Shown here one piece after another: positions 41,736 through 47,670 of a DNA stretch of 64,000 nucleotides. The position numbers were made by a program, and so were the translations under genes. This DNA comes from Halorubrum cibi (GTDB lineage Archaea; Halobacteriota; Halobacteria; Halobacteriales; Haloferacaceae). The notes under the pieces are model-generated. The model had not been told where the DNA came from. It saw only the letters and a list, made by a program, of their open reading frames with translations, and did no database searches. The stretch spans positions 1 through 64,000 of the forward strand of contig NZ_FXTD01000002.1 in assembly GCF_900182635.1 (NCBI RefSeq), in the 5' to 3' direction. Position 1 is the first letter of the stretch, and each line of letters begins with the position of its first letter.

Positions 41736-42068
41736 CTACTCGATGTCGACGCCGTCGGGGACGTCGACCGCCGCGTCGAGCGCGTCGGTGTGGTTCTGTG
41801 CGATCGCCGATCCGAGCGCGCCGAGCCCGCCAGTCGACCCGTCGAGCCAAGTGACCGCGCCGTTGGCCTCGAGGAATCCGGCGCGCCCCCGCTCGTCGTC
41901 GATCACGAGGACGCCGGCGAAGAGTCCGCCGACGCCCTCGGCGAGCGCGAGCGCGTACCCGCGACTCTCCAGTCCGTCGCGGTACCGCTCCATGCGCGCC
42001 CGCAGCGACTCGCGCTGGTCGGTCGTCAGCGGCTCGAAGTACCGATGAACGACGTCGTCGTCAGTCAT
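41736..42068 (-). CDS. Unknown 110-residue protein, last gene of DUF2589-type operon
   Basis: 110 residues. N-terminal helix (VVHRYFEPLTTDQRESLRAR then MERYRDGLE), a Gly-rich middle (LAEGVGGLFAGVLVIDDERG) and a second Gly-rich segment (STGGLGALGSAIAQNHTDAL). The ATG overlaps the stop of the upstream coiled-coil gene by four bases, so it belongs to the same operon. No membrane helix is convincing. I do not recognise the family; strand-loop alternation in the middle suggests a small alpha/beta domain. Confidence 0.75.
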   Translation of the reverse strand: MTDDDVVHRYFEPLTTDQRESLRARMERYRDGLESRGYALALAEGVGGLFAGVLVIDDERGRAGFLEANGAVTWLDGSTGGLGALGSAIAQNHTDALDAAVDVPDGVDIE

Positions 42069-42877
42069 CGCTTCTCCCCCGTCGGTTCGTCTCCCTCGTC
42101 CGTCGCGTCGAGCGTCCCCGCCCGCCGGAGCGGCCAGCCCTCCGGGAGGTCGATCCCGAGGAACGGCCGGCTCGAACCGGATTCACCTCGATCGGACGAT
42201 CTCCGCTTTCTCGAGGGAGGCTCAGCCCGTTTCTCGTCGTCCGCCGATCGATCCGACCGCCGTCGGTCCGTTTCGGTGTCGTCATTGGTTCGCTCATCGT
42301 TCGCGCCGCTTCGTTCGCTCGACTGCTTCTCGCGTTCCTCGCGCCGTTCGCGTTCCTTGCGTTCCTCGCGCCGTTCGCGTTCCTCGCGTTCCTTCCGTTT
42401 CTGCTCCTCACGCTCCTGTTTTCGATAGTACTCCTCTTTCGGATCGACTCGTTCTCCGCTCGTCCCGTAGTCGTCCGGATCGGCCTCGCGGCCGGCTCCC
42501 GCCGGGGGGTCCTCGAGCGGCACGTGGACGTCGACGGTCCGGTGGTCCGGTTTCCTCCGCTCGAGGCCTTCGTCCGGGAGGTCGCCCGCCTCGAGGAAGT
42601 CGTACACCTCGAGGTCGAACTCGAGGGCGGTGTCGTCGCCCTCGCCGGGTTCCGTGACGAACAGCTGGATCCCGCGTTTCGTCCGTTTGGCCTCGAGTCC
42701 GACGTCGAGCGACACGGAGAGGTCGTTCGCGTGGTAGACGGGTAGGCTCACGTCCTCCGGAAATCGCCCGGACTCGACCATCCGTTCGAGCCGAGTTCGC
42801 CCGTTCAACAGCGCCTGCATCTCCGCCTCCGAGACCGCGTCGAAAAGCGACGTGAGGAAGTGTCTGAGCTCAGTCAT
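42065..42877 (-). CDS. DUF2589-operon protein with long charged helix
   Basis: 270 residues. Residues 1-110 form a mixed domain: MTELRHFLTSLFDAVSEAEM, then SLPVYHANDLSVSLDVGLEA, FEFDLEVYDF-like strands. The segment LPVYHANDLSVSLDVGLEAK recalls the VPYFEVETVTIDFNVKLNS strand pair of the operon's DUF2589-type proteins, so it may be a diverged relative. Residues about 150-205 are an uninterrupted Glu/Arg/Lys helix (YYRKQEREEQKRKEREERER ...), then a disordered acidic linker and a hydrophobic end RPFLGIDLPEGWPLRRAG. Start and stop overlap both neighbours by four bases. Function unknown. Confidence 0.8.
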   Translation of the reverse strand: MTELRHFLTSLFDAVSEAEMQALLNGRTRLERMVESGRFPEDVSLPVYHANDLSVSLDVGLEAKRTKRGIQLFVTEPGEGDDTALEFDLEVYDFLEAGDLPDEGLERRKPDHRTVDVHVPLEDPPAGAGREADPDDYGTSGERVDPKEEYYRKQEREEQKRKEREERERREERKERERREEREKQSSERSGANDERTNDDTETDRRRSDRSADDEKRAEPPSRKRRSSDRGESGSSRPFLGIDLPEGWPLRRAGTLDATDEGDEPTGEKR

Positions 42878-43569
42878 TCGTCGTCCCCCTTGATCGTTGG
42901 ATCTTCGGATCTCTCACGTGTCGCCTCCTCTCGACTCGTTTTCTCTCGTCTCGCTTCCTTGCGTTCCGCCTTCGCCCGCTTCGCTTTCTCTCGCTCCGTC
43001 GGCGTCGCTCCCGCCGCCTCGGAGTCGCCGTCGACGACGGTCGTCATCAGCGATCGCTCGAGCAGGTCCATCCCGGTCGAGCGGTTCTCCACCTCGGCGC
43101 GCATGGTGACGTCGAGATCGAACGTCGTCTTGGTCCGGCGCGCGAACGTCTCCGACTGTCCGGCGGGCGCGACGTGGAGCCGCTGCGGGCGCAGCGACGG
43201 CGACTTCGTGCGACCGGTGACTGCGTCCTCATCGTCGTCCTCGCGTTCGACGTCCTCGACGTCGACGATCCGCGCGGAGAACGTCTGTTCGATCTCGTGG
43301 ACGACGAGTTCGGGCACTGAGAGGAACAACAACAGCGGGACCTCGAGCGTCTTCGGCCGCCGCCGCTGCTCGCCCGTCGCGTCGTCAACGTCCGTCGTCG
43401 CGTACTCGAACGACACCGTCGCGGGAGTCCCGTCGGACTCGAACCCGACCTCGCGGAGGAGGTCGATCGTCTCCGTCTGCGCCTGCGCGCTGGCGTCTAT
43501 CGCCGCTATCAGCGGCGCGGAGAACAGCGTCGCGAGCGGGAGGTCAGCGAGCGTGTCGGTCGGGCTCAC
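42874..43569 (-). CDS. DUF2589-type protein, paralogue B
   Basis: 231 residues from GTG 43569. Residues 3-110 align with the next gene upstream: LADLPLATLFSAPLIAAIDA, IDLLREVGFES, a strand TVSFEYATTDVDDATGEQRR, and LEVPLLLFLSVPELVVHEIE. The pattern (short N-terminal helix with P-L-x-A-A, then VPLL and a basic/acidic strand pair) is that of DUF2589 proteins. After about residue 115 it diverges, and the last 45 residues are a Lys/Arg/Glu helix (REKAKRAKAERKEARREKTS) like the helix of the following gene. Six bases separate it from the upstream stop. Confidence 0.85.
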   Translation of the reverse strand: MSPTDTLADLPLATLFSAPLIAAIDASAQAQTETIDLLREVGFESDGTPATVSFEYATTDVDDATGEQRRRPKTLEVPLLLFLSVPELVVHEIEQTFSARIVDVEDVEREDDDEDAVTGRTKSPSLRPQRLHVAPAGQSETFARRTKTTFDLDVTMRAEVENRSTGMDLLERSLMTTVVDGDSEAAGATPTEREKAKRAKAERKEARREKTSREEATRERSEDPTIKGDDE

Positions 43570-43575
43570 GCCGGG

Positions 43576-44187
43576 TCACTCCTCTTCGCCGTCGCCGTCG
43601 TCCGTCACGTCGGTGATCGTGGTCTCCAGCGCGGAGAACAGTTTGGAGACCCCTTCCGGCGGGTCGATGGATCCGGCCTCGACGTGGACGCGCTGGTCGT
43701 AGGTCCGCTCCACCTCCCGTCCGCGGCGAGTCGACGACTGATAGCTCATGTTGACCGACGTCTTCGTCTTTCCGTCGAGGAACCCGAGATCGAACCCGCC
43801 CTCCGACTGGTTGCTGAAGTCGAACTCGAACTCGCTGGAGCGCGAGTACGCCTCGACCGAGTTCAGCTTCACGTTGAAGTCGATCGTGACGGTCTCCACC
43901 TCGAAGTACGGGACGTGGATCAACAGAAGCAGCGGCACGGTCATCGTGTGGCTCTCGATCCGTTCGCTGCCGGTCTCCGGGTCGACTTCGCGGCGCTCGT
44001 AGGCGAAATCGACCGTCACCGGTTCCGCCTCGCCGACGACCGGTTCGGTGAACCCGACCGTCCGGATGAACTCCGCCGCGGTCATCGACGCGCTCGCGTT
44101 CGCCTCGACGGCGGCGCGCAACGGCGTCCCGATGACCTCCTCGTACGGTATCGATGCGAGCTCCGCCGGAAAGTTCGGACTAGGCAT
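43576..44187 (-). CDS. DUF2589-type protein, paralogue A (first gene of operon)
   Basis: 203 residues from ATG 44187 (MPSPNFPAELASIPYEEVIG); a TTG at 44202 is less likely. It shows the family order: ELASIPYEEVIGTPLRAAVE, MTAAEFIRTVGF, TVDFAYERREVDPETGSERI, MTVPLLLLIHVPYFEVETVT and IDFNVKLNSVEAYSRSSEF. The C-terminal part (KTKTSVNMSYQSSTRRGREV then ERTYDQRVHVEA) is a repeat-like strand region, as in bacterial DUF2589 proteins, and ends acidic. Family function is unknown. It lies directly behind a strong AT-rich promoter and leads the four-gene operon. Confidence 0.87.
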   Translation of the reverse strand: MPSPNFPAELASIPYEEVIGTPLRAAVEANASASMTAAEFIRTVGFTEPVVGEAEPVTVDFAYERREVDPETGSERIESHTMTVPLLLLIHVPYFEVETVTIDFNVKLNSVEAYSRSSEFEFDFSNQSEGGFDLGFLDGKTKTSVNMSYQSSTRRGREVERTYDQRVHVEAGSIDPPEGVSKLFSALETTITDVTDDGDGEEE

Positions 44188-44207: not shown

Positions 44208-44230
44208 GTGTTTTAATATATACTTTACTA
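44208..44230 (-). promoter_or_regulatory. Promoter of the DUF2589-type operon
   Basis: On the minus strand the sequence reads AGTATATATTAAAAC, with the TATA element at about 44215-44222. That is 28-35 bases before ATG 44187, so transcription should start at or a few bases before the start codon, as in typical haloarchaeal leaderless genes. The surrounding 40 bases are markedly AT-rich compared with the rest of the window. Confidence 0.6.
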
Positions 44231-45948: not shown

Positions 45949-47670
45949 TCAGGCTAAGAAGACGTGCCGGGGTCGGTCCGCGAGGACCTCCCGTCCCCAC
46001 TTGACCGTCTCGCGGAAGTCGTCGGATCCGAAGAACTCCATCGCGTCGTCCCTCGCGCGCCACTGGCTGGCGATGAACATGTCGTTCTCGTCCTCGACGT
46101 TCACCATCAGGTCCGTCTCGAGGTGACCGTCCATCCCGGCGAGCGCCTCGCCCACCTCGTCGAACGTGTCGGTGAAGTCCTCGCGGTGTTCGGGTTTGAC
46201 GGTGTAGAACATACCCATCGTCCCGAAGCCGGACTCCTCGCCGGCGCGACCCACGACGTCCGGCAACTCCGAGAGGAACCCGGCGGCGGTCTCGGCCGCC
46301 GAGGCGGTCTCCCAGAGGGAGACGACCGCGGCGCGGTCGGTGGAACGACCCCCGTACACCGCGGTCTTCACGTGCGTACCGTAGTGGTCGAAGTTGGCGC
46401 GGAGGCCCTGGACCTCCTCGAACAGTTCGTCGGCGTCGGCCTCGCTGTACAGCACCGTCGCGAACACGTCCTCGCCGTGGGGCTTGCCGGCGTAGATGTC
46501 GAGATCGGCGAGTTCGCCGCGGATCTCGTCGGCGTCGGCGGACCCATCCGCGTCGCCTCCGCCGTCACCACCGCCGTGGTGTCCGTGAGTCGAGTCGTCT
46601 TCGCCGTGGTGGCCGTGCGCGTCGTCCCCATCGTGGTGGCCATGAGCCGAGTCGTCCTCGCCGTGGTGGCCGTGCGCGTCGTCCCCATCGTGGTGGCCGT
46701 GAGCCGAGTCGTCCTCGCCGTGGTGGCCGTGCGCGTCGTCCCCATCGTGGTGGCCATGAGCCGAGTCGTCCTCGCCGTGGTGGCCGTGCGCGTCGTCCCC
46801 ATCGTGGTGGCCATGAGCCGAGTCGTCCTCGCCGTGGTGGCCGTGCGCGTCGTCCCCATCGTGGTGGCCGTGAGTCGAATCGCCCTCGCCGGTCGGGACC
46901 GCCTCGCCGGCCAGGTACGCGCCGAGGTCGGCCGGCGGGAACCGACGGCCGACGTAGAACTGCCCGAACTCGCCGTACCGCGAGGAGGCCTCGTCGAAGC
47001 GCATCTCGTAGACGATGTCCTTGATGTCGGTCGGGTCGGAACCGAACAGCGTCACACCCCACTCGTGGTCGTCGAAACCGACGGAGGAGGCGATCACCTG
47101 CTTGATCTTCCCCGCGTACTCGCGGCCGGTGTCGCCGTGTCCGGACATCAACTCGGCGCGCTCCTCGAAGGAGAGGTCGTACCAGTTGTACTCCTCGCCG
47201 CGGCGCTTGCTCATCGGGTAGAAGGAGACGTACTCGTCGTCCGGCATCTCCGGTTTCAGCTTCCCCTCGATGTACCGGCGGAGTCCCTCGTCGACCGCCT
47301 CCTCGTCGCCCTCGAAGTAGTCGTCCGAGACGTACCCCGACACCTCGGTGACCGAGACGTACGACGACTCCTTCGTCGTGAACTCCGCGAGCGCGGTGTT
47401 CTCGAAGCCCCGCTCGATCGTCGACAGCTCGTCGAGCGTCGGGCGGAAGTGGATCGTGAGCAGATCCGCCTTGTGCCCGAGCACGGAGAAGAGCGCGGAG
47501 TCGCCGGCGTCGGCGGCCGCGAGCCTCTCACGGTGGAGCAGGTACGACCGGCCCTCCTCGACGGCGCGCTCCCGCTTCCGGTCGGGCGCGTCCCGCCACG
47601 CGTCCCAGTCGATCGACCGGAACTCGTGTAGCGCGAACCACCCTTCCTCCGTCGCTGGTGCCTCGACCAT
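45949..47670 (-). CDS. pitA: PitA: chlorite-dismutase-like domain fused to ABM domain
   Basis: 573 residues. Residues 1-255 are a chlorite dismutase/HemQ-type domain (GWFALHEFRSIDWDAWRDAP, DLLTIHFRPTLDEL, YVSFYPMSKRRGEEYNWYDL, GVTLFGSDPTDIKDIVYEMR). Residues about 263-370 are a His/Asp/Gly linker of 19-residue repeats. Residues about 385-573 form an antibiotic-biosynthesis-monooxygenase (ABM) ferredoxin-like region (YTVKPEHREDFTDTFDEVGE, NDMFIASQWRARDDAMEFFG). The fusion is known in Haloferax as PitA. By family, a role in heme maturation (coproheme decarboxylation) is plausible; the linker suggests metal binding. Confidence 0.92.
   Translation of the reverse strand: MVEAPATEEGWFALHEFRSIDWDAWRDAPDRKRERAVEEGRSYLLHRERLAAADAGDSALFSVLGHKADLLTIHFRPTLDELSTIERGFENTALAEFTTKESSYVSVTEVSGYVSDDYFEGDEEAVDEGLRRYIEGKLKPEMPDDEYVSFYPMSKRRGEEYNWYDLSFEERAELMSGHGDTGREYAGKIKQVIASSVGFDDHEWGVTLFGSDPTDIKDIVYEMRFDEASSRYGEFGQFYVGRRFPPADLGAYLAGEAVPTGEGDSTHGHHDGDDAHGHHGEDDSAHGHHDGDDAHGHHGEDDSAHGHHDGDDAHGHHGEDDSAHGHHDGDDAHGHHGEDDSAHGHHDGDDAHGHHGEDDSTHGHHGGGDGGGDADGSADADEIRGELADLDIYAGKPHGEDVFATVLYSEADADELFEEVQGLRANFDHYGTHVKTAVYGGRSTDRAAVVSLWETASAAETAAGFLSELPDVVGRAGEESGFGTMGMFYTVKPEHREDFTDTFDEVGEALAGMDGHLETDLMVNVEDENDMFIASQWRARDDAMEFFGSDDFRETVKWGREVLADRPRHVFLA
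46591..46875 (-). repeat. Five tandem 57-bp repeats coding the His-rich linker of PitA
   Basis: Units begin at 46591, 46648, 46705, 46762 and 46819, each 57 bases, nearly identical, followed by a degenerate partial unit at 46876. Each codes a 19-residue block of the type DSAHGHHDGDDAHGHHGED. The exact period and low divergence point to recent expansion. The frame is preserved, so copy number can change without breaking the protein. Confidence 0.92.

What the first reader, a model, noticed from the sequence alone, without database searches (positions are those of the whole stretch)
41736..44187. Four-gene operon with two paralogous DUF2589-type proteins: best candidate for an undescribed system
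Seen: genes 43576-44187 and 42874-43569 encode aligned paralogues (LASIPYEEVIGTPLRAAVEA against LADLPLATLFSAPLIAAIDA; VPLLLLIHVPYFEVETV against VPLLLFLSVPELVVHEI). The third gene (42065-42877) has a similar strand pair and a long Glu/Arg/Lys helix; paralogue B has a like charged helical tail; a fourth small unknown gene follows. Three of the four junctions are four-base overlaps or six-base gaps, and a strong TATA element lies 28 bases before the first ATG. Known: DUF2589 has no assigned function. Inference: A and B form a hetero-oligomer or filament, and the charged helices of B and the third protein dock on each other. No enzyme, transporter or toxin motif is seen, so a structural or assembly role is more likely than catalysis.
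Basis: partly seen in the sequence, partly recalled or inferred. Interest (0 to 1): 0.78.

Follow-up and report, generated by a model that had tools for sequence, protein, structure and literature searches.

The report
Mobile haloarchaeal operon of DUF2589 paralogues
A salt-loving archaeon carries a tightly packed four-gene cassette in which three proteins descend from one uncharacterised protein family; the same gene set turns up scattered through other archaea, bacteria and some viruses, and in bacteria it sits beside wall-cutting enzymes, which suggests an undescribed machine that acts on the cell envelope.

Summary
Four genes (A, B, C, D) lie at 44187-41736 on the minus strand. A and B match DUF2589 (PF11655, E=7e-26 and 5e-12); C and D match no family. 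All four stay together, mostly with 4-base overlaps, in 13 other haloarchaeal genomes with different flanks. D, and the N-domain of C, occur only where A and B do. A related Halorubrum has a clean empty site.

New here: (1) C is a remote third paralogue of A and B (profile chain with shuffled controls). In other haloarchaeal groups its tail holds helix-hairpin-helix motifs, so the Glu/Arg/Lys helix is a local feature and the 'docking helices' idea fails. (2) Related sets occur in Archaeoglobaceae, methanogen-group archaea, Bacteroidetes, Proteobacteria and uncultured tailed phages. (3) In all seven readable bacterial loci a murein hydrolase, of five unrelated families, lies close by.

Best reading: a mobile, soluble hetero-oligomer working at the cell envelope, teamed with wall cutters where there is murein. 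A holin-like or pore role is inference (a Ser/Thr-rich hairpin in A). No fold match was found and no function has been tested. The only paper found mentions lactate induction in Archaeoglobus.

The parts
43576..44187 (-). gene A, DUF2589 protein, 203 aa, long form with a Ser/Thr-rich hairpin segment
   Evidence: PF11655 E=7.4e-26; kept in 14 haloarchaeal genomes; dN/dS 0.11-0.14
43702..43860 (-). A residues about 110-162: Ser/Thr-rich segment between predicted strands 3 and 4, alternating hydrophobic pattern in most A proteins, absent or replaced in B; candidate membrane-contact or oligomer hairpin (inference)
   Evidence: moment z about +1 to +3.3 in most of 30 rows, negative in three haloarchaeal rows
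42874..43569 (-). gene B, second DUF2589 paralogue, 231 aa, lineage-specific charged tail
   Evidence: PF11655 E=5e-12; tail only in window, L015 and L016
42065..42877 (-). gene C, 270 aa; N-terminal about 125 aa is a remote DUF2589-superfamily domain, C-terminal low-complexity charged region
42503..42877 (-). C N-terminal domain (about residues 1-125)
   Evidence: profile chain A9n-A6n-A7, scores 31.6 and 45.0 against shuffled 10.7+/-1.9 and 10.3+/-2.0
42329..42393 (-). 27-bp tandem repeat coding part of the Glu/Arg/Lys run of C
   Evidence: TRF 2.4 copies, 94% match
41736..42068 (-). gene D, 110 aa, small conserved protein with no family; occurs only with A-B-C
44211..44220 (-). TATA-like promoter element before A
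   Evidence: sequence

Best explanation
The four genes form one translationally coupled, horizontally moving accessory cassette. A, B and C are three anciently diverged paralogues of one superfamily (DUF2589 plus its remote C branch) and most likely build a soluble hetero-oligomer, with D as an archaeal accessory subunit. The complex most likely works at the cytoplasmic membrane or cell envelope. Bacterial forms of the same module are paired with murein hydrolases of unrelated families, five of seven without a recognisable export signal, as if the DUF2589 assembly gives passage through, or needs a gap in, the envelope. Archaea have no murein, so there the module stands alone. Most likely action (inferred): regulated perforation or bridging of the membrane by the oligomer, with the hairpin segment of A as the part that touches the membrane. 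Shown: operon, co-inheritance, paralogy, mobility, hydrolase neighbours. Inferred: oligomer, membrane action, purpose.
For: Kept as A-B-C-D in 14 haloarchaeal genomes at several different chromosomal sites. D occurs in exactly the sampled genomes that have A-B (6 of 195), and the C N-domain likewise. C joins the superfamily by a profile chain with controls. The A/B split needs 2 label changes on the tree against 17 shuffled. Empty site in G142: about 70 bp between the same flanking genes. Hydrolase neighbours: PF00959 lysozyme overlapping B by 17 nt in Burkholderia, GH108 in L074 and PF11860 in L075, PF11860 in L073 and M15 in L106, SLT in two Vibrio plasmids. None is named among 92 other annotated genes of the same three plasmids. 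Hydrolases without a hydrophobic N-terminus: 5 of 7. The A/B pair is also close to portal and capsid genes of uncultured tailed phages.
Against: None of A-C has a transmembrane segment or signal peptide, and D is borderline, so membrane action is not visible in the sequence. The hairpin pattern of A is only modestly above shuffles and negative in three haloarchaeal rows. The fold is unresolved (pLDDT 66, no PDB match). In the phage contigs no Pfam-recognised hydrolase lies beside the pair. L106 looks like a prophage contig, so its M15 gene may be that phage's own endolysin. Seven bacterial loci is a small sample found by similarity, and the hydrolase background was counted by product name only. 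HHH_5 motifs in C of other groups could instead mean a nucleic-acid role.
Confidence: 0.4

Rival explanations
1. Particle or appendage model: A, B and C are subunits of a large released or surface-exposed assembly derived from or shared with tailed phages. The hydrolases serve to let it through the wall or to lyse the producer, as in tailocins.
For: A/B pair inside phage structural gene clusters near portal and HK97-type capsid genes; endolysin-type enzymes beside bacterial copies; three paralogues suit a heteropolymer.
Against: No tail, sheath, baseplate or capsid gene seen in the archaeal or most bacterial loci; no PHROG matches for A or B; no fold match.
Confidence: 0.2
2. Anti-virus or abortive-infection module: a patchy, mobile cassette that kills or protects the cell on infection.
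For: Patchy distribution (11 of 392 haloarchaeal, 13 of 55 Archaeoglobaceae genomes), clean presence/absence polymorphism, occurrence on plasmids, relatives in phages.
Against: No PADLOC match; haloarchaeal flanks look like housekeeping genes, not defence islands; no sensor or effector domain.
Confidence: 0.15
3. Intracellular nucleic-acid or protein scaffold: C binds DNA or RNA through its HHH_5 motifs and A/B form a scaffold on it.
For: HHH_5 over its cut-off in C of L064 and L023, and by eye in L020, L065 and L109.
Against: The motifs are missing in the Halorubrum lineage including the window and were not seen in the bacterial, methanogen-group and Archaeoglobus sets examined; the hydrolase link would be unexplained.
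Confidence: 0.12
4. Metabolic or stress accessory operon without an envelope role, e.g. carbon-source dependent as reported for Archaeoglobus.
For: AF0414-AF0417 are up-regulated with lactate (PMC3949148).
Against: No enzyme, transporter or regulator domain in A-D or their relatives; one expression report only.
Confidence: 0.1

Closest known systems
DUF2589 family (Pfam PF11655)
   Same: A and B are members above the curated cut-off; helix, beta strands, helix layout
   Different: The family has no function. The four-gene haloarchaeal set, the third paralogue C and the accessory D were not found in the literature held.
Archaeoglobus fulgidus AF0414-AF0417 (lactate-induced DUF2589 genes, PMC3949148)
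   Same: A, B and a C-type third gene in the same order
   Different: No D and no charged or HhH tail on C; B of A. fulgidus is broken into two short frames
Phage holin-endolysin lysis cassettes
   Same: Bacterial relatives put DUF2589 genes beside signal-less endolysin-type enzymes, once overlapping
   Different: A-C have no transmembrane segments; no hydrolase in the archaeal operon; lysis never shown
Beta-barrel pore-forming proteins (aerolysin type)
   Same: Soluble proteins with a Ser/Thr-rich alternating hairpin between two long strands in A
   Different: No sequence or significant fold match (best Foldseek E about 0.9); resemblance only by pattern

Membership tests
DUF2589 (PF11655) | hmmscan score over curated cut-off of 23 bits | tested here: met
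   A 91.8 and B 46.9 bits
DUF2589 (PF11655) | same test for C and D | tested here: not met
   no hit; C reaches the superfamily only through intermediate profiles; D does not
Holin-endolysin lysis cassette | holin with transmembrane segment(s) | tested here: not met
   no clear TM segment in A, B or C; D borderline at 1.89
Holin-endolysin lysis cassette | adjacent murein hydrolase | tested here: not met
   absent in the window; present in 7 readable bacterial relatives
Holin-endolysin lysis cassette | causes timed lysis | not testable with these tools
   needs an expression experiment
Known anti-phage defence systems (PADLOC) | match to a PADLOC model | tested here: not met
   no match at E<=1 for A-D
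Tailed-phage virion proteins (PHROGs) | match to a PHROG family | tested here: not met
   no hit for A or for the phage copies of A and B
Beta-barrel pore-forming proteins | fold similarity to solved pores | tested here: inconclusive
   no hit with E<0.9; model low in confidence exactly in the hairpin

The most novel reading that the evidence does not exclude
DUF2589 paralogue sets are a previously unrecognised envelope-acting machine shared by archaea, bacteria and tailed phages: soluble subunits assemble into a membrane-perforating or membrane-bridging hetero-oligomer, which in murein-walled cells works with whichever wall hydrolase is at hand, making a holin-like device without transmembrane helices.
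Probability: 0.22. Interest if true: 0.88.

Novelty: categorically new. Interest (0 to 1): 0.62.

Why it matters
A family of unknown function present in archaea, bacteria and phages is shown to come as a set of two or three interdependent paralogues with a repeated kind of partner in bacteria. That turns an isolated DUF into a testable system, gives a specific cell-level hypothesis (action at the envelope), and gives a genetic handle: closely related Halorubrum species with and without the cassette at the same site. 'Categorically new' means here that no known kind of system was matched; it does not mean the function is known.

Tried and rejected
Pfam, NCBIfam, PADLOC, PHROGs and PDB sequence searches gave only DUF2589, for A and B. 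The first AF2 model of A with 36 rows was poor (pLDDT 57); the second, on an Archaeoglobus A with 52 rows, reached 66 with a confident core. Foldseek found no PDB relative, and the aerolysin and toxin-pore rows in its list are not significant. D compared with C, the Archaeoglobus third gene and the bacterial 91-aa protein: no relation. Docking of charged helices: rejected. Defence-island reading: flanks look like housekeeping genes. ARAGORN tRNA-Asp inside C rejected: not found by Rfam. Bacterial genomes at large could not be sampled (no bacterial genome handle; genome-contig scan spent), so the bacterial evidence rests on plasmid, phage and viral-contig records. E. coli genomes matched only the lysozyme part of the Burkholderia locus.

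Full report
Observation. The window's four minus-strand genes are as described: A 44187-43576, B 43569-42874, C 42877-42065, D 42068-41736, with gaps of 6, -4 and -4 nt. A and B match Pfam DUF2589 with E=7.4e-26 and 5e-12; C and D match nothing convincing in Pfam, NCBIfam or PADLOC. Purifying selection acts on all four. The only held paper that names DUF2589 reports lactate induction of AF0414-AF0417 in Archaeoglobus fulgidus (PMC3949148).

A conserved unit. tblastn and profile searches find A-B-C-D in the same order in 13 further haloarchaeal genomes: L015, L016, L017, L018, L019, L021, L020, L023, L064, L065, L107, L108, L109 (C of L107 was read directly). B-C and C-D overlap by 4 bases in most. 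The unit is patchy: 7 of 148 genomes of the family, 11 of 392 of the order. D is found in exactly the sampled genomes that hold A-B (6 of 195). Full-length C behaves the same; its other matches cover only the part after the N-domain. Flanks differ between groups: a mutL region, a hemC/RecJ-like region, an Lhr-like helicase next to a metallo-beta-lactamase-type gene, and a NADH dehydrogenase region (names by eye). In Halorubrum the site is constant, and G142, over 90% identical in the flanking genes, has about 70 bp where the window has the operon. So the cassette is gained and lost as a unit.

C is a third paralogue. Haloarchaeal C N-domains align with C-type proteins from methanogen-group archaea and a Bacteroidetes-like contig (score 31.6; shuffled 10.7+/-1.9). 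Those align with DUF2589 (45.0; shuffled 10.3+/-2.0) and with the third gene of Archaeoglobus operons (59.2; shuffled 11.3+/-2.1). The direct comparison of C with DUF2589 is not significant (13.3), so the link rests on intermediates. The C-terminal half of C is not constant: in L064 and L023 it holds HHH_5 motifs over the cut-off, L020, L065 and L109 look alike by eye and L107 possibly so, and in Halorubrum it is charged low-complexity sequence, with a 27-bp tandem repeat in the window. The charged tail of B exists only in the window, L015 and L016.

Distribution beyond haloarchaea. In Archaeoglobaceae 13 of 55 genomes have the family, as an A-B pair followed by a C-type gene where read. L060-L063 and L068 have A and a C-type gene, and four of them a further gene of about 190 aa. 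Gut Bacteroidetes-like contigs L073 and L086 have A, C-type, B. Proteobacterial loci L069, L070, L074, L075 have B, A and a conserved protein of about 90 aa. Uncultured phage contigs L077-L085 and L103-L105 have A and B together, in the first group upstream of a portal gene (PF04860, phrog_12) and, in L085, an HK97-type capsid gene (PF05065). On a tree of 51 sequences the A/B labels need 2 changes against 17 in shuffles, and a single origin is not excluded: the duplication is probably older than the spread.

Murein hydrolases next door. In all seven bacterial loci with readable surroundings a wall-cutting enzyme is near: phage lysozyme PF00959 overlapping B by 17 nt (L071, Burkholderia); GH108 directly upstream of B (L074); PF11860 muramidase (L075; L073); M15 peptidase (L106; prophage-like contig); SLT transglycosylase fused to a solute-binding domain (L069, L070). 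Five of the seven lack a hydrophobic N-terminus. Among 92 other annotated genes on the same three plasmids none is named as a wall hydrolase. Streptomyces L072 (fragmentary) and L086 (followed by an integrase gene) could not be judged. Unrelated enzymes with one activity beside a constant core suggest that cutting murein is what the bacterial module needs. Archaea of these groups have no murein (general knowledge), so its absence there is expected. In the phages no Pfam-recognised hydrolase is adjacent.

Fold. AlphaFold2 on an Archaeoglobus A with 52 rows gives a confident core: helix 15-45, strands 54-64, 71-81, 91-105 and 148-161, helix 166-177; residues 107-148 are unresolved (pLDDT about 31). 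Foldseek finds no PDB match below E=0.9 and one unnamed viral protein at E=5e-12 with 35% identity, in effect another DUF2589. The unresolved segment is Ser/Thr-rich with alternating hydrophobic residues and a Gly/aromatic turn in most A proteins (z about +1 to +3.3 in most rows, negative in three haloarchaeal rows). It recalls membrane-inserting hairpins, but that is a lead, not a test.

Mechanism. Shown: a co-inherited, mobile, translationally coupled set of three paralogues plus D, and wall hydrolases beside bacterial relatives. Inferred: a hetero-oligomer acting at the membrane or envelope (about 0.4); perforation or a holin-like role specifically (about 0.2). Rivals: phage-related particle, virus defence, nucleic-acid scaffold, metabolic accessory. 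None is excluded.

Novelty. The DUF2589 family is known by name only; the multi-paralogue system, its C and D partners, the HhH variant of C, the phage copies and the hydrolase link were not found in the held literature. It matches no known kind of system by family, defence or fold search, hence 'categorically new', with the caution that function is unknown and the structural model is weak.

Noticed in passing
window 46575-46891: 57-bp tandem repeat (5.6 copies, 96%) coding a His/Asp/Gly-rich linker inside the 573-aa gene 45949-47670 (HemQ/chlorite-dismutase type, by eye); possibly a metal-binding, length-variable linker.
   Followed up: no
window 42728-42804 (+): ARAGORN calls a tRNA-Asp (anticodon atc) antisense inside gene C; Rfam does not find it, so it is probably a false call.
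   Followed up: yes
L078-L085, L103-L105 (IMG/VR contigs): DUF2589 A/B pair in uncultured tailed-phage genomes, in one group followed by a possibly papain-like 195-aa protein and preceded by a coiled-coil protein with a C-terminal membrane segment; absent from the PHROGs library.
   Followed up: partly
L066:9068-9361, L067:9163-9489: Short archaeal proteins with a signal-peptide-like N-terminus followed only by the N-terminal helix part of DUF2589.
   Followed up: no
L054:8588-8979: In Archaeoglobus fulgidus the B gene is broken into two short overlapping frames, unlike relatives where it is intact.
   Followed up: no
L069:8896-9171, L070:8833-9108, L075:6936-7199, L074:6687-6968: A conserved protein of about 90 aa and no known family follows A in proteobacterial loci (pattern YHxGFxRKP near its end); not related to D.
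   Followed up: partly
L064:10108-11049, L065:10523-11332: B of this haloarchaeal group has a C-terminal helical module (TVSELR...RKTARRAIERR) that looks like a small SAP/HeH-type domain; HHH motifs sit in its C neighbour.
   Followed up: no
L086:2956-4956: In a Bacteroidetes-like contig the B gene ends early just before an integrase gene, as if interrupted by a mobile element.
   Followed up: no
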